64,000 nt of DNA from Romanomermis culicivorax. Lineage: Eukaryota > Nematoda > Enoplea > Mermithida > Mermithidae. Made by a program: the position numbers and the translations under genes. This document shows, piece by piece, positions 2 through 62,500 of the stretch. Under the pieces are notes generated by a model. The model made no database searches. It saw nothing but the letters and a program-made list of their open reading frames with translations, and was not told the origin of the DNA. Location: assembly GCA_963922205.1 (NCBI GenBank), contig CAWUHX010000012.1, positions 186,001 through 250,000 on the forward strand. Direction: 5' to 3'. Positions within the stretch are counted from its first letter, which is position 1, and each line of letters opens with the position of its first letter.

Positions 2-3000
2 ACTAATACAGGATTTTTTGGATCAAAAGGTATTGTCTTCGACCAAACCGAAATGCAAAATCTAACCCCACATGTTTGTAAGGCAATCGTTATAGACAAA
101 GAACACAACGGTCAAAAATTATACGAAACCCAACCAGGATTTTGGTCAACAAATAACTCCCTAAGCGTAGAATACACATGGTGTTGTACAGACCATTGTA
201 CCTCAGTCACTAACGTCATCATAGAAATAGGACAAATAGCATCTTGGAATGGAAAATCTATGACAGGTACATTAGGCGACCTAGGGTCATGCAAACCGAC
301 ATCAGGTCATTGTGTCACAGCCGACGGATCCATTATCTGGAATGAAACAGCATTTGAAAACTTATGCCCCTTCGAATACAAAAATACACATCCCATAAAA
401 CTCACACCAACCCACATGATAATAGAAGAGCTACAAGGTGCATTTTCGGTTAAAAACACACTCTTTTCAAACCCCAATTGCCCAGAAATCCAAGACAGCA
501 TTCTAACCGAACAAGGCATTATCGTACAATTAGACAAAAGCACCCCACATCGTAATGCATTTTTAACCCCAAAAACCAACGAAACTCATACTACACTATA
601 CGATTTTGATGATTTTGAACCCATCAATGCAAAACTAAACTATCTAGCAGACAAAATACAGGAATTCGAAATTCAAAATTTCAAAAATGTATGGAATGAA
701 TTATGCAGACAGGCACAGCGTCACCTTGATCTCGTATGGCAAATTTTACGTCTTGATGCAACCCTTGGAGCCCGTGCATTCCTACAGCGAACGGACATAA
801 TAGCAGAATTCACAGGAGAAGCCCTCACAGTCTGGCCCTGTAAACAAGTAAATGCATCTAAAATCTTTTACAACCACAAAATCAACCAAACATGCTACAA
901 ACTTTTGCCCATCTTCGTAGGAACCGAACTCATGTTTTCAAATCCAGGAGGCAACGATTTGACCCCTTTTTCGCAAACCGTTGACTGCCATCACATGCAT
1001 GTAGCCCTTTACAAACAGAATAATACATGGGTCAGTGAAACAGGATCCCTGCATGTCACAAATTTACCTTTAGAAATCATTTGGAACCAAAATTTTTCCC
1101 TTTTCCATTTTAATACACCCGCAATTTTCCATGATCAACTTGCAACAATTTCGACAAACTTACTCTTTTTGAAACAATACATTTATAAAACTCACACACT
1201 TGAAAACATTGTCAAAAAACTCGTCAATTACACTGCCCAAATGTCTCTCAATTCCGATACAGTTTACAACATGATCTCAGGCACTGGCCAAGCACTCGGA
1301 AATACACTCTCTGGCGCCGGTCAAGGCATAGAACATGTAATAACCGGTACCACCCAAAGTCTCACAGACGGATTAAACAATTTACTCAAAGGACCCCTGC
1401 AAATCATTATAAATCTAGCTGTTATTACTGTAGTTTTTGCAGGCATCTTTTATTTGTTTCTCGTTCTTCGAAAATACTTCCCCTCTCCAAAGCATCATGC
1501 CACAAACGAACATGCATACGAAATACCTTCAAACAACAGACATTTACATGAGACCATTCCCCCATCATTCGGCCATGCTCTCTTAGAATTAGCTAATCGT
1601 CGTGGGGCACAAACGCAGCAGAAATACGTCCTTGTCGATATTGATACCCCCCGAACTCCTACAATCGAACTCATTAATCAAATTCAGCAATCCGCATCAA
1701 ATAAGCCACCCCAAAATGTACCTGAGAAACATACCCCTCATATTCCAATCACACTTAACGGCAAATTAATGACAAAAGGCATGATTGACACTGGTGCAGT
1801 TTACTCACTCATTGATTCCCGAATCGCTCAACTTTTACAGTTAGACATGAAACCCCCGCTAGTCCAAGCAAAAGCAGCAAATAATCTCCCGATTCACTTT
1901 GTAGGAACCACTTTTGTCACAGTGACAGCCCAAACAATCCAGGAAACAATCATGGTCCATGTCCAAAAAGATTGCACAGCAGACATTCTTTTAGGCAAAA
2001 ACTTTCTCAGTCGTTTTTCGGAATACACTATCAACAATCAAAAATCACAGGTCAAATTTGGCAATGTTATACTACCTTGTGATGGCCTAGAATATAGCCC
2101 TCTTTCAACTCGTGGTGGAACTTATTTGGATGAGAAATTAGAATTACCACCCCGTACAGTAACCGAATTTACTGTCCCCTTGCCCAAATCGTACCTACAA
2201 GTTAAACAGCTTGAATTCACCCCAAAACCCAAACAGAATCCCAAAGTCCATTTCGCAGCTTGTATCTCAGAAAACCAAAACAGTCGCATACGCATATCCG
2301 TCTTAAACACACAAGAAACAGCCCAAATTCTTTATCCTGGAACATGCATTGGTACAGTCTCATGTTACATCCCAAAACAAAATGCTCCCGCTAATCTAAC
2401 CCCTTCAACGCAAAACCAGCCCAACCGTTTTGATACATTCACATGGTTAAAAGAAAACGTCAATTTAACCTCCAGTGACCTCACAGAAGCAGAAAAAACG
2501 CAACTCCTACGCGCCCTATCGAAGTACCCTACATTATATGCTAAATCCAAAATGGATGTAGGTAGAACCACCCTCGTTTCACATACAATTGACACCAATG
2601 GCTCCCAACCCGTACGTAGACAACTTTATCGGACTTCCCCAAAAGAAAAGCAAATCATACAAGCAGAAGTTGAGCAACTCGCAGCAGCAGGTGTCATAAG
2701 CCAAAGCAACTCCCCATGGTGTACCAACACAGTTTTAGTTCCCAAAAAAGATGGAGGCCATCGTTTATGCATTGATTTTAGAGGCCTCAATAAAGTAACC
2801 AAAAAAGATACATACCCCCTGCCCCGTATAGACGAAATTCTAGACACCCTCCGTGGAATGAAATATTTCACCTCCCTTGACCAATCCAATGCATATTATT
2901 CCATTCCCATAGCACAAGCAGACAGAGAAAAAACTGCATTCAATTGCTCAGCCGGCCAGTATCAATTCAATTACCTCCCCTTTGGACTCACCAATGCCCC

Positions 3001-5239
3001 AGCCACATTCCAAAGATTAATGGATGTTATTCTTTCGGGTCTGCAATGGAACACATGCCTTGTATATCTCGACGATGTTTTAGTATTCGCAGACTCCCAT
3101 GCCCAAATGCTGGAACGTTTAGACACTATTCTTGCCCGGTTCTCACAAGCAGGCCTCAAGCTAAACATACAAAAATGCAAATTCTGCCAGCCCCAAGTCC
3201 AATACTTAGGCCACGTCATTTCCCAGCAAGGCATTTCACCAGACCCCCATAAGGTCCAGGCCATTTATGACATACCCACGCCCAAAAGCTCAAAAGAAGT
3301 TAAGTCGTTCCTTGGCCTACCCTCATATTATCGCAGATTCATCCCAAATTGCTCTCAAGTTTCTAGCCCCCTCACATCACTACTCAAAAAGAATTCAGAA
3401 TTTTCCTGGGGCCCTGAACAGCAAAATGCATTCACTAAGCTAAAAGAACTACTCATTCATGCCCCAATACTACAGCATCCCGATTTCACAAAACCATTTA
3501 TTCTGCAAACTGACGCCTCAAAACTCGGAATCGGTGCCATTCTCAGTCAACTAGATATTAAAGGTCAGGATCGCCCCATTGCTTTTGGGAGCCGCACATT
3601 GAAACCTGCAGAACGCAACTACCCAATCACAGAGTTGGAAACCCTTGCAGTAGTCGAATTTGTCAAGTATTTCAGCCCCTATCTTTTCCAGCAACATGTC
3701 ATTGTACACACTGACCACACAGCAGTTCAGGCAGTCTTACAAAAGGAAAACCCCTCCCCTCGCATTGCCCGTTGGGGATTAGCCCTCTCCGGTATTCAGC
3801 TAGACATTCGACCCAAGAAAGGCACTGCTAACTGCAACGCTGATGCAGTTTCTCGGTTCCCCTCACAGACAGCAAAACAATCCTTTGATATTGAGCAATT
3901 AGAAACCCGCCCCAAAATATCAACTATCAATTCAGTTTTGGAAGCCGAAGCAACTGAACAAGAAGAGCAACAGAAAAACTTTGCCGAACTCCAACGCACT
4001 GATCCAACTGTCAAAAGTATTTTAGCAAAAATCGCCCAAAAACACCCCCTTACTCTGATCAAATTCGCAGTGCATCAAAACATTCTCTTCCGTATAGTCG
4101 ACAAACAGGCAAAACTATACATTCCCAAGTCGCAAGTCCAGCATCTCATCGCCTCACATCATGACAGCAAATTCGCAGGTCATTTTGCGGCCCGGAAAAC
4201 CCTACACTTGCTCAGACAGAAATACTTTTGGCCCCAAATGAGCCGTGATATCAAACGTTACTGCAAAACTTGCCACCCATGCCAGACACAGAAAGCTCTT
4301 AGACACAAAGTGCATGCAAACTTGGTACCAATTCAGCCAACTGGCCCATTTGATCGGGTTGGTGTTGATTGCATGGGACCGTTACCCCTCACTGAAGACG
4401 GCAACCGATTCATTGTCGTTTTCATCGATTATTTCACAAAGTATGTAGAGGCATTCCCGACCCCTGACATCACTGCAGCCACTATTGCCAAGCTATTCGT
4501 GACCAAAATTGTTTGTCGTCATGGGTCCCCAAAAATCATCCATTGTGATCGTGGCACCGATTTCGTATCCGATCTTTTCTCACGGATCACCAGTTTATGC
4601 AATACTCAGAAAATTCACACTACCCCATATCATCCCATTGCCAATGGAGAAGTTGAGCGTTGCAACCAAACCCTAGCCACCCGTATCCGCATGTACATCA
4701 ATTCAAATCACACTGATTGGGATACTTATCTCCTGTATGCCGTTTTTTCGATCAACATTCATAAAAATGATAGCACTTCGTATCCCCCATTTGAACTACT
4801 TCACGGTAGGCAAGCTAATCTGCCATCAGATGCAGCTTTAAACTTTTTCCCCACGTCCTACATGGTTGATTTAGATGATTACGCCCTTCGTGTAAAATCG
4901 CATTTCACAGAAGCACTCTCAACCGTGCAGAAAAGTTTGCAAAAAGCCCAAGCCCACTATACCCGTCAGTATAACAAACATGCTCAGAACATACATTACA
5001 AGGCAGGTGATCTTATTCTCTACAAAAATCATTCGTGTAAACAAGGGCTGACTCCCAAATTCCTCCCTCGCCAAAACGGACCCTATACAGTTACGAATTT
5101 CATGTACCCCAACGTTACACTCAAACACCCCCATAAGAATATTACATTTACGGTGCATGTAAATGAGACAACCCCTTTCTACCCTCGGAAAGCAACTATC
5201 GAATCTACCCCCACCCTTCCTCAACCTCGAAAGCCTTGA
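2..5239 (+). CDS. Env-like glycoprotein fused upstream of Ty3/Gypsy Pol (PR-RT-RNaseH-IN), 5'-partial
   Basis: The frame is open from the window edge to the stop at 5237-5239. The first Met is at 53, and residue numbers count from it, but the reading frame continues upstream, so the true start lies outside. Residues about 1-448 look like a secreted ectodomain: more than ten cysteines, about nine N-x-S/T sites, and one hydrophobic anchor at about 449-473 followed by a basic stretch. Then, without a stop, come a retropepsin D-T-G (about 579), RT with YLDD (1005-1008), RNase H with T-D-A-S (about 1153-1156), an integrase zinc finger (about 1364-1413), an integrase core with D1439, D1499 and E1535 (DD35E), and a C-terminal GPY/F-type module. 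Domain order and the GPY/F module indicate Metaviridae (Ty3/Gypsy). The intact 1700-codon frame suggests a young copy. The envelope family is uncertain; a C..DG.I.W..CP pattern is only loosely reminiscent of chu/rhabdovirus-like glycoproteins. C-rich codon use differs from the host genes. Confidence 0.93.
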   Translation, partial: TNTGFFGSKGIVFDQTEMQNLTPHVCKAIVIDKEHNGQKLYETQPGFWSTNNSLSVEYTWCCTDHCTSVTNVIIEIGQIASWNGKSMTGTLGDLGSCKPTSGHCVTADGSIIWNETAFENLCPFEYKNTHPIKLTPTHMIIEELQGAFSVKNTLFSNPNCPEIQDSILTEQGIIVQLDKSTPHRNAFLTPKTNETHTTLYDFDDFEPINAKLNYLADKIQEFEIQNFKNVWNELCRQAQRHLDLVWQILRLDATLGARAFLQRTDIIAEFTGEALTVWPCKQVNASKIFYNHKINQTCYKLLPIFVGTELMFSNPGGNDLTPFSQTVDCHHMHVALYKQNNTWVSETGSLHVTNLPLEIIWNQNFSLFHFNTPAIFHDQLATISTNLLFLKQYIYKTHTLENIVKKLVNYTAQMSLNSDTVYNMISGTGQALGNTLSGAGQGIEHVITGTTQSLTDGLNNLLKGPLQIIINLAVITVVFAGIFYLFLVLRKYFPSPKHHATNEHAYEIPSNNRHLHETIPPSFGHALLELANRRGAQTQQKYVLVDIDTPRTPTIELINQIQQSASNKPPQNVPEKHTPHIPITLNGKLMTKGMIDTGAVYSLIDSRIAQLLQLDMKPPLVQAKAANNLPIHFVGTTFVTVTAQTIQETIMVHVQKDCTADILLGKNFLSRFSEYTINNQKSQVKFGNVILPCDGLEYSPLSTRGGTYLDEKLELPPRTVTEFTVPLPKSYLQVKQLEFTPKPKQNPKVHFAACISENQNSRIRISVLNTQETAQILYPGTCIGTVSCYIPKQNAPANLTPSTQNQPNRFDTFTWLKENVNLTSSDLTEAEKTQLLRALSKYPTLYAKSKMDVGRTTLVSHTIDTNGSQPVRRQLYRTSPKEKQIIQAEVEQLAAAGVISQSNSPWCTNTVLVPKKDGGHRLCIDFRGLNKVTKKDTYPLPRIDEILDTLRGMKYFTSLDQSNAYYSIPIAQADREKTAFNCSAGQYQFNYLPFGLTNAPATFQRLMDVILSGLQWNTCLVYLDDVLVFADSHAQMLERLDTILARFSQAGLKLNIQKCKFCQPQVQYLGHVISQQGISPDPHKVQAIYDIPTPKSSKEVKSFLGLPSYYRRFIPNCSQVSSPLTSLLKKNSEFSWGPEQQNAFTKLKELLIHAPILQHPDFTKPFILQTDASKLGIGAILSQLDIKGQDRPIAFGSRTLKPAERNYPITELETLAVVEFVKYFSPYLFQQHVIVHTDHTAVQAVLQKENPSPRIARWGLALSGIQLDIRPKKGTANCNADAVSRFPSQTAKQSFDIEQLETRPKISTINSVLEAEATEQEEQQKNFAELQRTDPTVKSILAKIAQKHPLTLIKFAVHQNILFRIVDKQAKLYIPKSQVQHLIASHHDSKFAGHFAARKTLHLLRQKYFWPQMSRDIKRYCKTCHPCQTQKALRHKVHANLVPIQPTGPFDRVGVDCMGPLPLTEDGNRFIVVFIDYFTKYVEAFPTPDITAATIAKLFVTKIVCRHGSPKIIHCDRGTDFVSDLFSRITSLCNTQKIHTTPYHPIANGEVERCNQTLATRIRMYINSNHTDWDTYLLYAVFSINIHKNDSTSYPPFELLHGRQANLPSDAALNFFPTSYMVDLDDYALRVKSHFTEALSTVQKSLQKAQAHYTRQYNKHAQNIHYKAGDLILYKNHSCKQGLTPKFLPRQNGPYTVTNFMYPNVTLKHPHKNITFTVHVNETTPFYPRKATIESTPTLPQPRKP

Positions 5240-5256: not shown

Positions 5257-5270
5257 CGGAAGGAGGGAAA
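5257..5270 (+). other. Polypurine tract of the LTR element
   Basis: A purine-rich run (GGAAGGAGGGAAA) sits immediately before the LTR start TGTAACG and 17 nt after the pol stop. This is the expected plus-strand priming site. There is no room for a downstream env gene between the pol stop and the LTR. Confidence 0.85.
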
Positions 5271-5372
5271 TGTAACGTACCTGCTAAAGCAGTACTGTAA
5301 ACATGTAGCATACTGTATGTAACAGACATTTATTAGATATTATTTTATTTTCACATTTTATCGTCTCAAGGA

Positions 5373-5395
5373 TGTCTGGGATTCACACCCAAACA
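5373..5395 (+). other. Conserved hairpin in the LTR
   Basis: The sequence can form a stem of TGTcTGGG with CCCAaACA. In the solo LTR (61918-61940, minus) the same place forms a perfect 9-bp stem. One G-C pair here is A-T there (a compensatory change), and two mismatches here are paired there. It may be a structural RNA or protein-binding element of the U3/R region. Confidence 0.45.
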
Positions 5396-5865
5396 TTCCT
5401 ACAAAATTACGTGAAGTACTTTATTTTGATCCGTTCACACCCCGGTAGCCCAATTAAGATGCCCTAATTAATTTGCACAAACGGCAGCTGTTCCCCTAGA
5501 ACCTACACTAAACTACACATTCCACAGCTACCGTAATCCCCCGTAAAAATCGTAAACAACACCTGCACACAGTAAAATACGTAGAAGCCCCGCCGTACAG
5601 TAGTCTCAAGTGTAACAGTAGCGGCGGCCCCACAAAACATGTGTATACAGAGAAACCGATACAGGAAGCATGCACAGAAGCACAGAGGTGTGGCCAAGCC
5701 CACCGTAGAAAGCAAGTGAAGCACAGAAAGCATACGGTACCAGAAAAGCGTTAGAGAGGCGTAACTAAGAAAGCATAAAAAGCGTAGCCGGAAACGACGA
5801 TTGGCGGAAGAAGATGGACAGAAGCTCGACCTCCCGCAGCGTCCAGGGAGTGGCCAAAATCGCCG

Positions 5866-5873
5866 TATAAAAG
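5866..5873 (+). promoter_or_regulatory. Candidate LTR TATA box
   Basis: TATAAAAG lies inside the 3' LTR. The corresponding position of the solo LTR reads TATTTAAAG, followed in both copies by a purine-rich stretch and GCAAAGCGTG. Conservation of the neighbourhood suggests the LTR core promoter; this is inference from motif and position only. Confidence 0.5.
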
Positions 5874-6174
5874 AAGAAGCAAAGCGTGATTTTGATCATC
5901 TTTCGGATTCTGATTCTGATTCTCATTCTTGTGTTTTTCCGCGCTCGCCCCGTCTTTATACATTTGCAAGCGGCCGACTATTCGAAAGCATTTAAACCGA
6001 GGCCCCCGTCCGTATTTTAATTCAAAGCGCGTTTATTGTCGACGTTCAAGCGACCGTCGATCCCTGTTGTTGTATTGTAATCGTACGCCGCGCCCCCGTC
6101 CCGTTATTTACCCCGCCGTATCGACCGATTGGTCCAAGTAAAGTACCTCACAGAAATCTGGTCGTTACAGATGA

Positions 6175-6303: not shown

Positions 6304-6872
6304 TTTTCCGTGTTCGAAAACTCCTTCCACCAAAAGAATACTGCGAGTTGAAAAATGTTACTTTTGGAATCTGATCATCGATCTGATGAATATTGTTACT
6401 CTACGTTTTAATATACCTATGTACACAGACGATACGAATGTCATTTTGATTCTTTGTTGGCAGTGTCATCGTTTACTGTATATATACGCACATGTTAATC
6501 AGCAAAACACTGTCTGTATAGTCGCTTGTCTGTACAGACTGCAGACTGTATATCCACCGGGCTATATAGACTGCAGTTGAGCCACAGCCTTTGCCTTACG
6601 CTACTATCGCTATTTACAGTACAGCCATTTTAGTTCAGAGTAAACCATCTCACGGTAAAACAGGATCATTAAATCGGATATCGCTCTTCACAACTACTCG
6701 CAGTTAGTCGTCGCATCCAGCTGGAAGGGCATTCAAAAACAGATTGAAGGAATCAAATTTTGCATGAAAACTTTCTTTTAGCTTAAAAGTCAGTGGGCCA
6801 AAGACAGCTCATAGTCTACTTTCTAAATGCTGGTAAAATGCTTGCCGCTAAATTATCCGTAGTGTGGAGTTG

Positions 6873-7213
6873 AAATTTCGGAATTTTTAGGGATGGCGGT
6901 GGCCACGCCGAAATTTCTCTGACGCTGGTTATTGGGGGTTTTCATGATGAAGGGAAGAAAGAACAAGTGAAATTGTGCATGGGAAAAGCGCCAAAGCGAA
7001 GTTATGGGAAAAAATTTGCATCACTTATGCAATGATGTCCCCATATTCGTCCACCTTTTCTTCTTCATTGTTCTTCAAATTATTCATTTATAAGAGCCTC
7101 AACAGCGCTGCGCCCTTAGGGCGCAGCTGCTGTACCCTAAGCCTAAGCCTAAGGAAAATTTTAAAGGTAAGGTAAATTCGGCGGCCACTGCCACCCCTAA
7201 TTTACCCGAAATT
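6873..7213. mobile_element. Foldback/MITE-like element with ~40-bp inverted ends
   Basis: The left arm at about 6873-6925 (GAAATTTCGG...GGCGGTGGCCACGCC) is repeated in inverse orientation at about 7160-7213 (GGCGGCCACTGCC...CGAAATTTC). Arms are imperfect, about 40-50 bp, and flank about 240 bp without coding potential. A small GC hairpin (GCTGCGCCC/GGGCGCAGC) lies inside at about 7108-7128. Target duplication not resolved. Confidence 0.55.
7135..7154. repeat. Short interstitial TTAGGC-type repeat
   Basis: The + strand reads CCTAAGCCTAAGCCTAAGG, i.e. about three units of TTAGGC on the minus strand. TTAGGC is the telomere unit of nematodes. With only three units it may be coincidence. Confidence 0.35.
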
Positions 7214-7319
7214 TCGCTAGCTATAAATGAATTAAGCGTCGTATGTAATAATCACGAATCAATATAAAACCTGATACATATTTCAAGTTCATAGGTATAC
7301 TTCTAGCCATTCCCACCAC

Positions 7320-7391
7320 GGGGAATTAGCTCAGTGGTAGAGCGTCTGCTTTGCATGCAGAAAGCCGTGGGTTCGAACCCCACATTCTCCA
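7320..7391 (+). tRNA. tRNA-Ala (anticodon UGC)
   Basis: A complete 72-nt cloverleaf can be drawn: acceptor stem GGGGAAT/ATTCTCC with discriminator A; D arm with GGTAGAGC; anticodon loop TTTGCAT giving UGC; T arm GTGGG-TTCGAAC-CCCAC. The G3:U70 wobble pair, the identity element of alanine tRNA, is present. Internal A box (TAGCTCAGTGG) and B box (GGTTCGAACCC) are intact. There is no intron. It decodes GCA-type alanine codons. It lies between a foldback repeat and the 3' side of PPWD1, on the opposite strand to that gene. Confidence 0.97.
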
Positions 7392-39541: not shown

Positions 39542-39592
39542 TGGTGACCGTACCAGTTTGGAACAGGAAGGGTACAGGTAAGTAGGGTAAGT

Positions 39593-41148
39593 TTGTTTAT
39601 TTGTTGTTTATTTGTTGATGTTTATAATATTTTGTTTGTTGTTTTGGCACATTTTCCTACATTCTTTTCAAAAATCGAACCCAAGCGGTTTTCGTGTGGT
39701 CGTTTTGAAGACCAATGTTATCGAGTTCTATTAAGCCTTAAGCCAATGTCCAAACCCCCTTCAAAATTGAACATCCTGCCACCCAAGGCGGGCGACCCCC
39801 CTGCGCGACTACTGCCAGCCATGACCCCCAACCCCACTGCACAAGAGAAATTAGATCTTATGGCTTCACAGATGGACAAAATTATGCTCTTGTTAGGTCA
39901 AATGCAAAGCCAGATCTTGGCTCAACAGCAAAAGATCAATGACCTTGAAACAGGCAACTTTCCAGTAAGCCCATCTCATATTCTCCCTCCTCAATCTTCA
40001 GGCCCGTTGCCCACCGAGCAAGGGGATTATGGGTTAACCAACCCATCCCATACCTTGCCGGCCGAAAGTTGCTGTGACCCCAATGTCAGCAATGACGTTT
40101 TTCAATTAATACGAAAGGAGATGCTTCAAATTTCAAATCAAATTCAGCAGGGAGTCGCTAATTTTACCCTTCACATGGGCATTGAACCAAAGTTAGTTTT
40201 GCAATTTTTCAAAACTTTAGATCAATAGTTTAAAGACAATCCTCCCTTGCCCGAAAGTGTCAAACTCGAAATTCTGTGATGAACAACCGATCCCGACGTT
40301 CATCATTTTATGGAAGATCACACTTCCTATGATGACGCCAAGCAAATTCTTTTAAGTTTTTTAGCCTCCCCCGGAACTTTGAGTGACCTTCATCGAAAAT
40401 GGTCTACTATTTCCTAAGGGGATTCCAAAAGTTGCGTTCAATTTGTGAATCAACTATATTCTTATGCACCTACCCTTTTTCAGGACAAGGAAAGAGATCA
40501 AATGATAATTACTCAATTTTATAGCAAGTCGTCTCCAGTTATACAGGTGACATTGGAAGAGCACAAGGGTCAAATTGGTTTGCTTCAAGATTTAGTCACT
40601 TTTGCGATAATTTGGAGAGGGAACTGAAAATTCAAGATGAATTATTCGAACAATGGCTACAAAAACACCACTGCCTTGTGATTAATGAAACAAAATTGCT
40701 GGATCAAGTAAGCCATGTGGCCAATCAGGATTCACCACCGCCAACAACACCCTTCAACAAATTTAGAGGTAGCAATTTTAGAAATTCAACCACTAGTTCA
40801 TCTTACAGAGGACAAGGTAACCATAATATGGGCCCCCAGCATGGTAGCTACAGTGGTAACCCCTCATGGCCTCAGCAACAACCACCCCCCACGCCACCTC
40901 CTGCGCCTGCTGCACCTGTGCCTCCAGGGCAACCTAGCAATGATGCTATTCTGGCTAATAATGTTCTCCTTGGTCAACTTATTGACCTCTTACAAAAGAA
41001 TCAAATTGTGCCACAGACCCTTACGCCTAGCCTTACCGCATCCACTGTGCCAATGCAACCACCAGGTCTCTCTAGAACACACATATATTGCGGGTATCAT
41101 TGCATGTTTGGACATTCAATTGAATGTTGTGTAAAGTTACAAGAGTAA
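39593..41148 (+). pseudogene. Gag remnant with CHCC-type finger
   Basis: Reads in pieces 39593-40228, 40445-40627 and 40612-41148, separated by stops (TAG at 40226, TGA near 40279) and a frame change near 40615. The N-terminal part has a Pro-rich region and a coiled-coil-like Gln-rich helix. The C-terminal part has a Pro-rich linker and the finger YCGYHCMFGHSIECC, after which the frame soon stops. Capsid-like function is inferred from position. Confidence 0.75.
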
Positions 41149-41803
41149 ATCAAACAGTAGACATTTCCGTGTATTACTCTAATACACCTGAAAATTCTTA
41201 TCAACCTCGAGTGCCCACACAATTTTCAAACCAGCCTTGTTTGGTGGCTCCGTCCTCTACCTGTGAAGGCTACGGTAGTTATACCACACCTTCCAGGAGA
41301 CCACCGGCATGGAAACCCTCAACATATTACAGTAACCAGCCACATACTCCAAATGTTCAAAGTACAAGTGAGAATTTAAAAGCCCAAAACCAGTTTCCCC
41401 CCCCCCCCCACAGTACTATAATCCGATTAATGTAGTTTCTTTTCCACCTATGACCTCTAATCAGGATCAAAAACCTGCCGCCCCTGTTACACAATATAAC
41501 TCTATTAATATTTCTAGGAATCACTTACAGGCAAGAAATAAGCAGGAATCAAATGCTAGCAGTACTAAAGAAAACAAGACGATGTCATTTTATAGCAACA
41601 AATTCACACCTCCATTGGAAAAAACTAGAGGTAATAAAATGAAATTTCGCAAAATTTAACTATTTTTCAGGATACAATGGACACAGTGGAAAATACCATT
41701 TCCACTGTGAGCACCACCAACAATCGGCCTGGATATTTTCACCATTTAACATCAACTGAGATTATGTTTTTCCAGAAATATTACAAGACTCGACCATTGG
41801 AAG

Positions 41804-42118
41804 TTGAAGCCAAAATGGGTAGGTAATTGGAGCGGCTTAGCACTTCTAGATACTGGGGCCATGACCCCCATTATTGGATGTGACATGTATGAACACATTA
41901 CTCATACAGACCCCAGGAATTTGCCCACTTCTGGATATATAACGGTTGCCAATGGGCAACAAGTCCCAAGCTTGGGACCAGTCAATTTTTACACCAGGCT
42001 CGAGCAACTGAGCACACACATTATCCATTACACTGTATTAGTGTCGCCAAAATCCACAATTATAGTTGGTATGGACTTCTTAGCTCATGAAGATATTGGA
42101 GACATATTTGATTTCTGA
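41804..42118 (+). pseudogene. Retropepsin remnant
   Basis: The D-T-G-A active site is at 41849-41860 in the context LALLDTGAMTPIIG, and IIVGMDFLAHEDI near the end matches the second conserved block of retroviral-type proteases. The frame ends in TGA at 42116-42118. Confidence 0.8.
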
Positions 42119-42482
42119 AATAGGACCCTTACCATTGCAGATAAACCAGTAAATTTCAATATACAATGCCCAGATTAACCATTGAGGTCTATAATGTGCC
42201 CTCCTCTACCACCCCCACCATCAATAACCTCTACACCACCAACAACAACATCAATCAATGACATATCACTGACGCAACCAGTAAAAGACATGAAGAGTGT
42301 TTCGATACAATCCTACACTGATCAAATTATTTAGGGTACTGTCTGGTCCCCTGAAAAGTTTGTAACTTCATCTCCATGTGTAATCGCTTCCAATGACAAT
42401 TCTTCATCACTGTCAATCGAACCCGCAATTGTCAATCCACAATTCGATCATTTTCCAGTAGTAGTCATAAACAACCAACAAA

Positions 42483-43429
42483 ATGATAAAAGTAAGTAGA
42501 AACAAAATTACAGGTAAAGTGGCAATGCTTGTGCACAAGGTCATGACCTCCTCTAATGCCACTGCATCCCCTCACGACAAACCATCAGAAAATGTTGACA
42601 ATGTTGACAAAGTTGTAGCCAAATCTAACCTAGACAGTGCACAGAAAGGTAAGTTGCATGAGTTCTTGCTTGCAAATAGCTCTGCTTTCAGTTTAGCAGG
42701 CGATCCCCCTACAGTAACCCACCTAGTGCAAGATGCAAGATCGGTAGCTAAACATTATTATCATGCGCCCATCCAACAATGCCATATCATCAGAGAACAT
42801 ATTCAGGATATGCTAGACAAACAGGTAATAGAACCTAGTTGGTCCACCCCCTTGTTTTTAGTGTCCAAAAAGGACTGGTCTTGGCGCCCCATAGTGGACT
42901 TTAGAGGCATCAATGATGTTACAAAAGACGACAGGTACCCTTTCCCAAGGATGGATGGTTACTTAGACAGCTTGGGAGGGACCAGGTACTTTACAATGCT
43001 TGATCTAAAAAGTGGATACTGGCAAGTACCAATGGCCCTGGGTTCTAAAGAAAAAACTGCGTTCATCTCGCAAGACAGATCATATCAATTTATGCTAATG
43101 CCTTTTGGCTTAAAAATGCTCCCGCACAGTTCCAAAGGCTAATGGAAAGAGTTTTACAACCTTATGTATGGAAAATCTGCCTTTTTTATATTGATGATAT
43201 TATTGTTTTTTCAGAAACATTCGAGCAACATTTAGAGAATTTACCAATTGTTTCTGACTGTTTACAAGCTGCCAATTTAACACTCAAACCCAAAAAATGT
43301 GACTTTTTACCTATGCAAGTAAGTTTTCTAGGCCTCATATTGAATACCAATGGAATAATGCCGGATCTGAAAAAGATCAAGGCCGTGACCAAATTTGACT
43401 TTCCCCGTGACCAAAAAGCCCTACAATGA
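42483..43429 (+). pseudogene. Reverse transcriptase remnant with frameshift
   Basis: Conserved RT blocks are seen (WSTPLFLVSKKD, RPIVDFRGIND, RYFTMLDLKSGYWQVPM, FMLMPFGLK). One base is missing in the A-run around 43110-43118, which shifts the frame. The catalytic YIDD (43187-43198) is in the next frame. A TGA at 43427-43429 interrupts the connection domain where the family has Arg. Confidence 0.88.
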
Positions 43430-43432
43430 CTT

Positions 43433-43888
43433 TTGGGCATGGTCCAATGGTGTAAATGTTTAATTAAAAGTCTCCCCCAAATGGCTGACCCGTTATACAA
43501 ACTTTTAAGAAAAGATGTTAAGTGGGAAATTACTGAAGATCATATTTCTTCTTGTAAGGCAATCAAACAAGCCCTAACATCAGCCCCATTTCTGCAATAC
43601 CCAGTATATGACAATTCTGTGACGTTTGTGATCCAAACAAATGCTAGCAGGACAGCAATTGGAGCCATATTATATCACAAAAATGCTACCGATAAGTGGA
43701 CAATCGCCTATTCCAGCCAAAAATTGTCTAAGCCCGAAACGCACTATTCCACTACAGAAAGAGAATGGTTTCAAATGTACCGTCACTACCTTTTTAGATC
43801 AAAAGTTATCATAAGAACGGACAATAAGCCCCTAATGGGCATGTTTAAAAATACTTTAGTTCAAAAAAATTTATGTCTCCAAAAATGA
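43433..43888 (+). pseudogene. RNase H remnant
   Basis: Continuation of the polymerase: the first catalytic position reads T-N-A-S instead of T-D-A-S (43640-43642), so a metal-binding Asp is lost; S-Q-K-L-S and T-E-R-E-W blocks are still readable, and R-T-D-N follows. The frame ends in TGA. Confidence 0.82.
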
Positions 43889-43927
43889 TCAATTTTTGTA
43901 GATTCTTTTAATTTTTCTGTAGAATAT

Positions 43928-45000
43928 GTGTCCCAAAAAGAAAATGCTTTTGCAGACTTTCTTAGCCAAAAATGTGACATTGATACACAAGACAATGGCA
44001 AACCATCAACCTCGGACCCAACATCGAGTGGCGATTCAATTAATATTGTCGAAATGAGAGCCAAATCAAAGCAAAAATTGGCCCCACAGCCACAAGCTGA
44101 CATGGAGGTTCCCAAAATGCCAGAAGACAATAAAATTATCGATCCATCTGACCTACTGAACCAAGATTTATGGCCCTTTATGCAACAACAAATTGCTGAT
44201 GCTCAGAAAGTTGATCCCACTTTAGACCAACCATGGCAAAAGGTGGAAAATCAGGTAAAAGGATTTTATACTCTCTATAATGTTCAGCATAGGGAAGGTG
44301 CAAAAGATGAACCAGATCAAATTGTTCTCCCTCAACCTTAGCAAAAAAAGCCTTGCACCATTTTCATGGGTCTAATTTGTTCAGCCACCAGGGTATCAAC
44401 AAAATAATATTTTTGGTCAAAAAACATTTCTGGTGGCCCCACATAGAACAAGATATCCAAAATTGGATTAAATCATGTGAAATATGCCAAAAAAACCACG
44501 AAAGATTGCCAACCGCCTCTGCCACTATGCCCAATTCAGTCAATGGTCCCTTTTGACATCATCCCTTCCAATATTGTCAACATTTCCAATGTTTCCAAAA
44601 AAATGCCTTACCTGATCTTCTTTCAAGATTATTTTATGAAATACGTGGAAGCTGCTCTCATTCCCAATACATCTGCGCCAGTATTGTAGATACTTTTGTA
44701 AGATTAGTTGTGTGTAGATATGGGACCCTGAGGCAGTTATTAAGTGATCACGGATCAGTATATACCTCTAAACTCTTAGGAGAAGTGTGTGAGTTGTTGA
44801 ACAAAAGAAAAATTCAAACCACAGCCTATCACCTACAGTGTAGCGGCATGGTAAAACGCTTTAATCGCACTTAAATCGACTGCTTGTGAAGATTAGCTTA
44901 TAGTAATACGGAAGATTGTCCCAAATTCTTGGATCTCGCGTTATTTTCTTAGAGAGCCACTCCGCACAAAACGACAAAGAAGAGCCCACACAGCCTACTT
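43928..45000 (+). pseudogene. Integrase remnant
   Basis: Linker 43928-44341 ends in a stop. The zinc finger H..H..CEIC lies at 44353-44520. The core follows in several frames to about 45000: the first catalytic Asp region reads S-N-I-V, S-D-H-G-S is kept, and the Glu position reads G-M-V-K-R (Glu lost). Downstream similarity fades near 45000. Not functional. Confidence 0.8.
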
Positions 45001-50227: not shown

Positions 50228-50876
50228 ATAGTGGCGCATAAGTTCTCAATTTTGCGTGAACACCATTCACTTAGTAATCGTGTTTCTATTGGCTCAAACA
50301 GCACTATAGTCCAGTTACTTTAAAATGGCGGACACAGCGATAAAAAAGGGTAGGTTCAATTTGACGCACAAAACTATATACTGCAAAAAAATATGTGTCC
50401 CCTTATGACAGGGGAAGATCAAAAACAAAGAAACAGCAAGGTTATTGGACGAAAAAGTTTTTCTCATTGATTACAGTTATAAACTTACTATTTTGTCCGA
50501 ATTGAACTTACTGTCAATGCTTTCATCTGCCAATACAAAACCAATAAAAGTATGGAATTGTACAAAAAAATTTTACTCAAAAGACCATACCTCAAGGATC
50601 GGAAAGATAATGTTATACAATTCGAACAGTACTTACAATTTTTGCCATTGGCCCAATTCGCACTAAATTTTACATGAGCGTGGTAAAAAGTTATAAGTCT
50701 GCCTGCAGCAACTATTTCAACTTCAAAATCACAAGATGGTAGTAGTAGTACTTGCATGCAACGGAGATTTGTGTTTGGGGATGGAGAACCACTTTGTTAG
50801 GACATCTGTTAAGACTACTGCACAACTATTATTATAAATTCCATAACTATTATTACTACCATTACTACTACTATTA
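50228..50876. other. Partial MITE B copy, otherwise nothing seen
   Basis: 50308-50500 resembles family B (TATAGTCCAGTTACTTTAAAATGG and TTTTTCTCATTGATTACAG). The rest is AT-rich. Confidence 0.45.
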
Positions 50877-50910
50877 CTCCTACCACTACTATTACTACTA
50901 CTTCTACTGC

Positions 50911-50982
<72 letters not shown>

Positions 50983-51033
50983 TAATACTACTACTACTAA
51001 TACTACTACTAATACTAGTACTACTACTACTAT

Positions 51034-51114
<81 letters not shown>

Positions 51115-51150
51115 TAATACTACTACTACTAATACTAATACTAATACTAG

Positions 51151-51200
<50 letters not shown>

Positions 51201-51339
51201 ATACTACTACTAGTACTACTACTAATACTACTACTACTACTACTACCATCACTAATACTACTACTACTAATACTACTACTAATACTAGTACTACTACTAA
51301 TACTACTACTACTACTAATACTAGTACTACTACTACTAT

Positions 51340-51420
<81 letters not shown>

Positions 51421-51505
51421 TAATACTACTACTACTAATACTAATACTAATACTAGTACTACTACTAATACTACTACTACCTGCCAGCACACTACTACTA
51501 CTGCT
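50877..51505. repeat. Large ACT/AGT microsatellite
   Basis: About 600 bp of ACT triplets with AAT, AGT and ACC interruptions, arranged in a higher-order pattern: two blocks of about 340 bp (50920-51210 and 51260-51470) repeat the same series of interruptions. Minus-strand frames read as poly-Ser or poly-Val and are not supported as genes. Confidence 0.95.
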
Positions 51506-53132
51506 ACAACTACCACGACGTGATGAGAGTGGATGTATCCAGGAATCCCGGAAAGGCACGTCAAAAGACGTTTAGAACCAAGAGAGTTGACGACTTTCCA
51601 TAACACACAAGGACATTGACTTTCTACTGAGCCATTTAATTCCTAATTTTGTTTTTCATAATAGAGAAGCTTACCGTCGTCATTTAGTGAACATCTCATC
51701 ATGACCGCTGAAACCGCAAAAAATAGAATGAGGAAATTGAAGCGGAAAAACATAAATTGGGAATGAAAGTGTCGTACCGCCCATAAATATGCGAATGAGG
51801 CACATGGGAGGCCTATGAAAAAACAAAACGGGGCGAAATTGTGAAAAACAAGAAAATAACTTTAGATATCTGGAAAGTGCATTGAGGTACTGCTCGGACT
51901 TGATCATGGAACGTATTTGCACCCCGTCTCAAGTCTTTATTTGTCCATGCGGGAATTCTTAGCACAGAAAACATTAATACTTATATTGGCAAAAAATTAT
52001 AAACGAATTGTCACGCTAAAGAACTATCGAATGCATAAAATTTCGTATTTCACGATTCCAATCAAAAAGCACTTCTTACTCTCGACAGACTATAGCAAAC
52101 TAAAAATTCGAAATTGTCACAACAATCTTAGAAGTAACACTATTTTTTTACACTACGGTCAGATGGTAAAATAATATCGAGATTATGTAGAAGGAAATCG
52201 TCACATGAATAGGTTCACCGTTTAATAACTTATATATCCGATGCGTAGTCTAATTATCTTTGGAATCCTTCGACCCTTATTTGAAAAATAAAACGTCTGT
52301 TTGAGTCAAGCACACTTCACTTCATCTTACCTCTCTGATTTCAAGTTCACGGAGGCGTTCATGAACCAAGTACAGTAACGTCTACGTTTTCCAGAACTAA
52401 AAATGATGTTCCATAGTACTGGAAGATTCTAGCAGCAGTAATATTCTTTAGAAAAAAGTAGCGAGAATAATCAAACAGCATAAGCTTCGTCGCAGGTAAA
52501 TTCAGTGGTGAATTACTTGCATAGTTGCATTTTGATAAATGGTATAGCTACCTAGCACCAAGTAAAAGTATGCATAAATTACCGTAGTACTATGCAACAT
52601 ATTATCGCAATTGTATCATCCGCAATGAGAGAAATATTTTTTGTAGGAGTATTACATTTGTGTTTGATGAGACAGAACGTTGATGACAACAAATAACTCA
52701 CGCATATGAAACCAATTATCATAATCGTTATTTATTCAGATGACCCGCTCGCAAAATGCTAGTTGTGTGAATCAACTTGTCATTTTTGGCCTCCAAGGTA
52801 CCACACCGCCTTTTGGAACACAAGAACCATAACATCATCACGAATTATTATTTTGAAAATCTCACGAACTTAAACAGAGAATTTTATGGCTATCACAGAT
52901 GGTCTGTTCCCACAATTTTCACAGTGTGGAAAATCCGATAATTTGAACTCGCTTTTCACTTTATTTAAAACACTGCTGAAAAAGCTCAGATCAAACTATG
53001 AAATGTCAAGATTGAAATAAACTGGATCCTATAAAAGCACAAGTGATATAAATACAGAAAAAACAAAAATAAACAATAGGCAGGTTTCTCCATAGGCGGA
53101 CAGCAAATAAAACTTTTTCGGTAATACTGCGT
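51506..53132. other. Gene-free region downstream of the IGFBP-like gene
   Basis: AT-rich. No exon or RNA gene recognised on either strand. Confidence 0.45.
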
Positions 53133-59590: not shown

Positions 59591-62500
59591 TCTCAGGAAA
59601 GCAGTCTGACAATCTTGCTTCTCCTCATTGTTGCATGTAATGCATCTGTGATACGCCGAGGCTCTACTGCATCAGAAAAGGGTGGCTTTTGCTCGGATTT
59701 CAAAAATGAGAAAAAACATGCTAGATGTAGAATCCGAAAACTGGCACTCATGCCGCACAAATTATACGTAAATTTTAGTGGCAACATGTGTAATGACAGA
59801 AAGTTCATCGCCTCTGTCGAGTCCCCGAATGACCTATTTACCAGAGCATTATGACGATGACAAATACGCCATTTTGGTCGACAAAATTTATATAATTTGA
59901 AGTATATCATGACGAGGAGGTTTACTGTTGTTCTTCTTACTGTATCTAATGTCGTTTTTATGCAAGATATTTTATCGTCTCAGCAGCTGAAGGTTTATCG
60001 TTGTAGTGAGTTCGCAACCCACATGTATTCTCTTTGTGGATATTTGAACATTAGTACGCAAAAAATGAAAGTTGTAGATATTTGAAAAATTTCTCTTATG
60101 CATACTCATTTGCATACATTTATACACACAGACACAAATCAACATGTGAACGAAAAGATGAGAATCAAAAATTTAACCATCATTCCAGCAGTGCCAACAA
60201 TGCCGGGAATCGTGCGGTTGTCGGCGAATTTGGTGGTATTTTTTCAGAGGTTTCATATAAATCCGTTTCTGTATCGTATTTTTATGCAGATAACGACTGA
60301 ATTCTCCAATAATTTGAACGCATACAGTAATATGAAAGTTTTGTTACCGTATGGGGGTACGATAGACGTTTCATGTACGGGACACGACGAACATGGATGC
60401 GGTGGTGTGGGATCGTGGTGAGTAATACCAATATTTAACACAATCTTTTGAAAAGAGCACTGAATTCGGTCCTTCTCTACAATTTTACCACCACGTCATT
60501 ACAGTGAAAAGAAAAAATGGATGAATCAAAATAGAGCGTGAACAGCTCGCCCGCTTTGGAAGTGACATATACCAAGCGGGCAGGCCCACGGCGGCGGAGT
60601 CACGCGTGACGACTGAAAACCGAAATCATTGCTAGCAATCTTACTGTAGTTTTCCACGCGTCCGCTAGTTTAGAAATTTTTCTATCCCAGCGGGCACCGC
60701 TGCAAAATGTTAATTTTGAATCATTTTCATCCCGATTTTTTGCGAAATCATTGTTTATTCGGCGATTTTAACCCAATTTATTGCTAAAATGTAGCTTTCC
60801 GATGAGTTTAAATAAAAATTTCGTAAAAAAATGCCGAATTTTTGAAATTTCGAATTTTTTCCACAATTTTCGGCCAATTTTTTGTGCAATCTTTGTGCTT
60901 GGCGATGGTGACATTAATTCATGTAAGAAGTCCGACCAGTTGGGGAGTGAACCCAAAGCTTTGGGGTGGGGTCCCGAAATTCCCAAAATTTTGGGGGTGC
61001 CCAAAAATCCCGAAAAAGTAAGAAGCCCGAAAATTGCGAAAATTTTCCCAAAAAGGCCAAAAAGTCACTTTTTTTCCAAATTTTTTCGAGTTAGGGGGTT
61101 CCGACATTTGGGTATGGGGTTCCACCAAGTTAGGGTGCCCCCCCCCAATTACAGGTATGATTTTTTTGCATTTCTCTGGTGTGTAACGCCCAGATTCTAA
61201 TTATACTTTTACTTGATCCCGAAACGATTTGCGATGGCTCACGAGGGACGCGGCGACGACAAAATGATAATGATAATATAAATGGCAATAATTAAGGCAC
61301 GCCGACAGATTCTCTACGTGGATGGATACGGAATATAAAATGCTTCTGCTTTCAGAACGAATATCACATACGAAAAACATGCTTTCACAAAATCTGACGG
61401 AATCACGCTTTGCTTCTCTTTAAATACTGCTTCTCTTTAGCCACTCCCTTGGTTCGCGGGGGGGGGTGTGTTTCCAAAATCTTCTTCTGCCAATCGCTGC
61501 TTCTTGCTTCTTCCGCTTCTGTACTTTTTACACTTGTTTAGCTACGCCTTCTAACGCTTTCCTGGTACAGTATGCTTTACACGCTTCTCTCATGCTTGCT
61601 TCCTTGCCTACAGTGGACTTAATCACGCCTACGTGCTTCCGAGCATTCTTCTATATCTATTTCCTCAGCCTATACATGTTTTTGTAGGAACCACGCTACT
61701 GTTCCACTTGAGACTACTGTCTGGCGGGGCTTTTAATTTTTACTGTGTGCAGGTGTGTTTATGGTTTTTGGGGAGAATTAATGTAGCCGTGGAATGTGTA
61801 TTGTCGTGTGAATTCTGGGGACATGGTGCCAATGTGCAAATTAATTAGGGCGTCTTTAATTGGGTCAATTGGGTGTGGAATGATCTAAACAGAGTGCTTC
61901 ACATAAATTTATAGGAATGTCTGGATGTGAAATCCAGACACCCTTGAGACGGTAGATTATGAAATGAATTTATATTTAATAATAAATATCACATAGTGTA
62001 CATTATGTATTTACAACGATGCATTGGCATCTACATTACAGGTGAAATAAAGCAGGATCGACCTTCTAAGTTGCGCTCTGACCATATTATCTTCACAAAA
62101 ATCAAAAATATATGTAACTGTTGGACAAGAAATCGAAAATATCTATCTACTGCAACTATCAGAAAATTAAGTTTGATGCAGCGAGCAACTTTGCCGAAAT
62201 TCAGATCGAAATTTCCACAGTAAACTATGAAAATGGCTAGCAGCGGCGACCGCATGGTCCTAAATCGGCGGGTTAGCAGCCATCACGCGTGGTGTTGCCC
62301 GCAGCATGAAGTGACACTCCGCCTCAAGGCTCAGTGCTCATGATGGAAAATTAATAAAATGTCGTTGTGGTAAATTTGTTGAAAAAATCCCTAGATTCTT
62401 AATCGAAATCTGAAGGTATTTCTTTGATAATGCTCGCGAAAGCTCTGATTTGTTTCTGAGGAACTCCGACTGACAATGGTGAACTGTTTTCAGCCGTTGA

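What the first reader, a model, noticed from the sequence alone, without database searches (positions are those of the whole stretch)
2..5239. LTR retroelement with an envelope-like glycoprotein encoded upstream of, and fused to, pol
In known env-bearing Metaviridae and retroviruses the order is gag-pol-env, with env as a separate downstream gene. Here a Cys-rich, multiply N-glycosylatable ectodomain with a single membrane anchor (residues about 1-473) is followed in the same open frame by protease, RT, RNase H and integrase. Only 17 nt separate the pol stop from the polypurine tract, so there is no downstream env. The frame is intact for 1745 codons. As written, translation would tether Pol to the cytoplasmic face of a membrane glycoprotein until protease, which lies directly after the anchor, releases it. 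I know of no described element with this arrangement, but I could not search.
Basis: partly seen in the sequence, partly recalled or inferred. Interest (0 to 1): 0.92.

Follow-up and report, generated by a model that had tools for sequence, protein, structure and literature searches.

The report
Retroelement making Gag-Env-Pol as one protein
A jumping gene related to retroviruses carries a herpesvirus-gB-like membrane fusion protein inside its main protein chain, between the shell part and the enzymes, instead of as a separate gene at the end.

Summary
Window 2-5239 is one open frame (1,745 codons, open at the window edge): glycoprotein ectodomain, membrane anchor, protease, RT, RNase H, integrase, then a polypurine tract and an 899-nt LTR. 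The glycoprotein is a class III fusogen by homology: PF24664 E 1.9e-18; models of it and of a relative match herpesvirus gB, at low model confidence. The fusion is shared. Of ten relatives (32-42% ectodomain identity), eight run in frame from glycoprotein into protease, and three are complete frames of 2,327-2,597 aa: Gag - TM1 - glycoprotein - TM2 - PR - RT - RNase H - IN. So the element most likely encodes Gag, Env and Pol as one polyprotein crossing the membrane twice: Gag inside, Env outside, Pol inside. Two relatives end soon after TM2. A search for separate glycoproteins of about 310-985 aa found none. ICTV puts metavirus env downstream of integrase (PMC7879559); nothing I saw in ten paper searches describes this order. 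The window's own gag, 5' LTR and other copies were not seen: the genome search did not complete. Topology and processing are inferred.

The parts
2..5239 (+). Open frame Env ectodomain - TM - PR - RT - RNase H - IN; 5' end lies outside the window
2..1381 (+). Glycoprotein ectodomain (class III fusogen by homology), N-terminus cut by the window edge
578..1120 (+). PF24664 Monjiviricetes_fusion match
   Evidence: (E 1.9e-18), coordinates
620..754 (+). Predicted long central helix, equivalent to residues 306-350 of P0010
   Evidence: low-confidence models
1382..1468 (+). Membrane anchor TM2
1745..2014 (+). Aspartic protease (PF13975), DTGA at 1787-1798
2036..2377 (+). Region equivalent to a dUTPase-like fold in the model of P0010 (approximate limits)
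   Evidence: not tested on the window itself
2813..3220 (+). Reverse transcriptase (PF00078 match in the piece from 2801; the domain begins upstream of that cut), YLDD at 3065-3076
3407..3790 (+). RNase H (PF17919/PF17917)
4121..4297 (+). Integrase zinc-binding domain (PF17921)
4358..4636 (+). Integrase core (PF00665)
5060..5092 (+). Stretch with the GPY motif of the integrase C-terminus (motif recalled)
5258..5270 (+). Polypurine tract
5271..6169 (+). 3' LTR, 899 nt, TGTAAC...GTTACA, TATAAA at 5866
61401..61982 (-). Relic of a related LTR (two pieces, 77.0% and 75.8% identical)

Best explanation
This is roughly the 3' two-thirds of a Ty3/Gypsy-type (Metaviridae-like) endogenous retroelement of a lineage that encodes Gag, a captured class III fusion glycoprotein and Pol as one polyprotein. 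Shown for the lineage: the order and frame of the domains, the two hydrophobic segments flanking the ectodomain, the class III homology, and several groupings shared by the env, gag and pol trees. Inferred: the chain is made at the ER. Gag stays in the cytosol, TM1 acts as internal signal, the ectodomain enters the lumen and is glycosylated, TM2 stops transfer, and PR-RT-RNase H-IN is made on the cytosolic side. Signal peptidase may cut after TM1, and the element's protease, which lies 69-212 residues after TM2, then frees Pol and Gag. Each particle would receive Gag, Env and Pol already at one membrane and in equal starting amounts, giving an enveloped, potentially cell-to-cell transmissible particle without a spliced env mRNA. 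The topology resembles that of alphavirus and flavivirus polyproteins (recalled).
Against: P0008 and P0012 end 8 and 87 residues after TM2 although their contigs are longer; they may be broken copies or may use a frameshift. P0010 begins with Met at its signal segment, without Gag in the same frame; P0004 starts just before the first conserved Cys. The two searches that found the relatives admit only proteins of about 605-1,925 and 825-2,625 aa, which favours fused ones; one search looked at shorter ones and found none. Gag in P0012 rests on the knuckle pattern alone. The hydropathy scan also flags four segments outside TM1 and TM2 (P0006, P0007, and two in P0009). AlphaFold models are weak overall (pLDDT 50.4 and 54.5). 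Deep pol nodes are unresolved, P0006 and P0009 are not sisters there, and P0013 is placed differently in env and pol. Positive-inside charge around TM1 fits in only 5 of 7. No expression, cleavage or particle data. The window's own gag was not seen.
Confidence: 0.76

Rival explanations
1. Splicing or frameshifting separates the products: full-length RNA gives Gag-Env-Pol or Gag-Env, while a spliced RNA without the env segment gives the working Gag-Pol, so the long chain is a minor product.
For: Insect endogenous retroviruses make Env from spliced RNA (PMC12992720, passages). An acceptor-like TTTTTGCAG lies at 1434-1442 inside TM2. P0008 and P0012 lack pol in frame.
Against: Eight acceptor-like strings occur across the frame, so one at TM2 means little. 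The reading frame is kept through both junctions in three complete relatives, which a discarded intron would not need.
Confidence: 0.15
2. Chimera or misassembly: a glycoprotein gene landed in a Gypsy pol by chance in this copy.
For: Only one copy is visible in the window.
Against: Eight of ten divergent relatives from other contigs share the junction. Env and pol identities rise together over 36 pairs (Spearman 0.47; the pairs are not independent).
Confidence: 0.02
3. The glycoprotein no longer serves entry; it is kept as a membrane anchor for assembly inside the cell.
For: Two anchors would tether Gag and Pol by themselves. No furin-type RXXR in 4 of 11 ectodomains, three of these cut at the N-terminus; class III proteins such as VSV G need none (recalled).
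Against: The ectodomain is about as conserved as pol in the six pairs with over 1000 pol columns, and its Cys pattern and gB-like fold are kept; an anchor would not need them.
Confidence: 0.1

Closest known systems
Env-bearing Metaviridae (Errantivirus: gypsy, ZAM)
   Same: LTRs, polypurine tract, PR-RT-RNase H-IN order, captured viral glycoprotein
   Different: Their env is encoded downstream of integrase (PMC7879559, whole text); in insect elements it is F-type and from spliced RNA (PMC12992720, passages). Here env is class III, inside one frame, upstream of protease
Anakin (BEL/Pao elements of mosquitoes with chuvirus glycoprotein)
   Same: Glycoprotein from the same broad viral group, captured by an LTR element
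   Different: Pol is BEL/Pao type; BEL/Pao elements are described with Gag and polyprotein as two coding regions, and Roo, Tas and Cer-7 with env downstream of the polyprotein (PMC7642597, passages; the exact position in Anakin was not in the passages seen)
Jingchuvirales glycoprotein EVEs near Gypsy fragments in arthropods
   Same: Same kind of glycoprotein beside Gypsy sequence
   Different: The authors report no clear evidence of capture by Gypsy (PMC10084718, passages); here the glycoprotein is in frame with a Gypsy-type pol
Rotifer TelKA, Juno and Vesta elements
   Same: Retrovirus-like LTR elements with captured genes; some have a dUTPase between PR and RT
   Different: Env-like protein is an ORF3, of paramyxovirus F type in TelKA (PMC5408684, passages)
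Herpesvirus gB and Jingchuvirales/Mononegavirales G proteins
   Same: Class III fold and central helix
   Different: Not part of a retroelement polyprotein

Membership tests
Metaviridae (Ty3/Gypsy) | Pol order PR-RT-RNase H-IN | tested here: met
   complete relatives
Metaviridae (Ty3/Gypsy) | LTR with TG...CA ends next to a polypurine tract | tested here: met
   3' LTR only
Metaviridae (Ty3/Gypsy) | Gag with CCHC zinc knuckle | tested here: inconclusive
   Pattern present in 6 of 6 gag-bearing relatives; the window does not reach its own gag
Metaviridae (Ty3/Gypsy) | 5' LTR, primer binding site, target-site duplication | not testable with these tools
   Outside the window; genome search did not complete
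Metaviridae (Ty3/Gypsy) | RT phylogeny placing it within Metaviridae | not tested
   No reference set of Gypsy, BEL and retroviral RTs was aligned
Env-bearing Metaviridae / Errantivirus | Env encoded downstream of integrase (PMC7879559) | tested here: not met
   Pol stop 5239, purine tract 5258, LTR 5271; env lies upstream
Class III viral fusion glycoproteins (PF24664) | Match to the family profile above its cut-off | tested here: met
   66.2 bits against 27; 10 of 10 relatives
Class III viral fusion glycoproteins (PF24664) | gB-like fold | tested here: met
   [not shown]
Class III viral fusion glycoproteins (PF24664) | Membrane fusion activity | not testable with these tools
   -
Anakin / Belpaoviridae | BEL/Pao-type pol | tested here: inconclusive
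   No BEL/Pao-named family among the Pfam hits (which families are typical is recalled); no RT tree

The most novel reading that the evidence does not exclude
A previously undescribed lineage of endogenous retroviruses in which Gag, a class III Env and Pol are translated as one double-spanning membrane polyprotein, so that capsid, fusogen and enzymes are delivered together in cis, a third solution beside spliced env and frameshifted pol.
Probability: 0.7. Interest if true: 0.92.

Novelty: new variant of a known kind. Interest (0 to 1): 0.87.

Why it matters
The order gag-pol-env, with env downstream of integrase, is how retroviruses and env-bearing LTR elements are described. A lineage with env between gag and pol in one frame breaks it, shows that a captured fusogen can be built into the replication polyprotein, and suggests a polyprotein topology known from alphaviruses and flaviviruses (recalled) but, as far as I know, not from reverse-transcribing elements. 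It also gives a capture of a chuvirus/gB-like glycoprotein by Gypsy-type elements, of which an arthropod survey saw no clear evidence (PMC10084718, passages). The model makes plain predictions on topology, cleavage and stoichiometry.

Tried and rejected
Chance frame: rejected, the other five frames hold 67-116 stops. Cys-rich part being Gag: rejected, PF24664 and gB matches. Sequence match of the window ectodomain alone to solved structures: none at E 1. The 9-sequence profile gives 18 gB among 21 rows (one of them named ORF8 there), only the best below 0.001. One scan each of viral contigs and prokaryote genomes with A1, using two and one short peptide patterns: no relative. Search for separate env proteins with A2: none among 4703 candidates; it is limited to shared words and to 0.55-1.75 times the query length and would miss distant ones. 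First fold model is poor and its matches are only supportive. Host: genes in the window are animal-like; the best PDB matches of its DHFR include 8e4f, which I recall as a filarial worm enzyme, so a nematode is a guess. Splice-site strings: uninformative. In ten paper searches no listed title, abstract start or passage read describes a Gag-Env-Pol frame; most listed papers were not opened, and subscription journals, bioRxiv and Repbase were not searchable. My draft said 31-42% identity and filed BEL/Pao as not met; on checking I corrected these to 32-42% and inconclusive, and lowered confidence from 0.78 to 0.76 because of the length bias.

Full report
WHAT IS THERE. Window 2-5239 is a single frame without an internal stop, open at the window edge; the other five frames of that stretch carry 67-116 stops. 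In order it encodes a Cys-rich ectodomain, a membrane anchor (1382-1468), an aspartic protease, RT, RNase H and a zinc-finger integrase. The stop is followed by 18 nt, a 13-nt purine tract and an 899-nt LTR with TGTAAC...GTTACA ends. A decayed relative of the LTR (two pieces, 77.0% and 75.8% identity) lies at 61401-61982 on the other strand, so the family has been present more than once.

IT IS A LINEAGE, NOT AN ACCIDENT. A search with the window's first 1100 residues, scored on residues 1-500, gave three proteins; a search with one of them gave nine rows including the query and one already known. Together these are ten relatives, 32-42% identical to the window ectodomain. Eight of ten continue in frame into the protease: seven by Pfam, five of these above the curated cut-off, P0010 by fold only. 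Six of ten have a Gag-like part upstream in the same frame, each with a zinc-knuckle pattern; PF03732 gag is found in three of the six, one above cut-off, and P0012 rests on the pattern alone. Three of ten (P0007, P0009, P0011; 2,327, 2,461 and 2,597 aa) are complete: Gag, TM1, glycoprotein, TM2, PR, RT, RNase H, IN. Against this, P0008 and P0012 stop 8 and 87 residues after TM2, and P0010 starts at its signal segment without Gag. P0004, P0005 and P0013 start in or just before the ectodomain. The two searches admit only proteins of about 605-1,925 and 825-2,625 aa, which favours fused ones.

CO-INHERITANCE. In trees of env (11 rows), pol (9) and gag (6), window+P0004 and P0005+P0011 are well supported in env and pol, P0007+P0008 and P0006+P0009 in env and gag. 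Deeper pol nodes are unresolved, P0006 and P0009 are not sisters in pol, and P0013 moves. Ectodomain identity exceeds pol identity in 32 of 36 pairs and gag identity in 15 of 15, but many pol pieces are partial; in the six pairs with over 1000 pol columns the difference is only -2 to +6 points. The glycoprotein is therefore about as constrained as the enzymes.

TOPOLOGY AND MECHANISM. TM1 lies before the ectodomain in 7 of the 7 relatives that reach it, TM2 after it in 10 of 10 and in the window; the same scan flags four segments elsewhere. The protease begins 69-212 residues after TM2 in the seven relatives measured, 93 in the window. TM2 is followed by basic residues (2-8 in up to 25 aa, except P0008, of which 8 residues remain); the charge rule around TM1 fits 5 of 7. 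Sequons are denser in ectodomains (80 in 5,727 aa) than in gag (22 in 3,146) or pol (51 in 8,313), and above the shuffle mean in 11 of 11 ectodomains (2 of 6 gags, 5 of 9 pols). From this I infer Gag in the cytosol, Env in the lumen, Pol in the cytosol, with release by signal peptidase and the element's protease. Cleavage sites, stoichiometry and particles are not shown.

COMPARISON. ICTV places env of Metaviridae downstream of integrase and lists one to three genes (PMC7879559, whole text). Mosquito Anakin elements carry a chuvirus glycoprotein on a BEL/Pao backbone (PMC7642597, passages), and an arthropod survey saw no clear capture by Gypsy (PMC10084718, passages). Bdelloid TelKA elements carry an env-like ORF3 of paramyxovirus type (PMC5408684, passages). 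Cer1 was read in passages only (PMC10309623) and Troyka in abstract and passages (PMC12440569); Troyka is said to encode no env. Belpaoviridae and insect ERVs were read in passages (PMC8742986; PMC12992720). In ten paper searches nothing I saw describes a Gag-Env-Pol frame; most listed papers were seen as listings only.

LIMITS. The window's own gag, 5' LTR, primer site and sister copies are unseen, since the genome search did not complete. No RT tree with reference families was made, so 'Gypsy-type' rests on domain order, Pfam families, LTR form and a recalled integrase motif. How the database proteins were predicted is not stated by the tool, so intron-joined models cannot be excluded for them; the window's env-pol frame is read directly from genomic DNA.

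Noticed in passing
[not shown]
   Followed up: partly
window 39548-45000 (+): A decayed Gypsy-type element with gag-like, RT, RNase H and integrase fragments broken by stops, only distantly related.
   Followed up: partly
window 61401-61982 (-): LTR relic 76-77% identical to parts of the element's LTR.
   Followed up: no
P0013: A member of this family is filed as a protein of a Desulfobacteraceae metagenome bin, probably eukaryotic contamination.
   Followed up: no
window 50815-51606: Long trinucleotide tract that yields repetitive frames on both strands.
   Followed up: no
window 6872-6904 and 7183-7215: Inverted repeat of 33 nt, 79% complementary, just before a tRNA-Ala gene at 7320-7391.
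   Followed up: no
window 8435-57499, - strand: Host genes: cyclophilin, Asparaginase_2 (taspase-like), DHFR, Kazal-Ig and IGFBP domains.
   Followed up: partly
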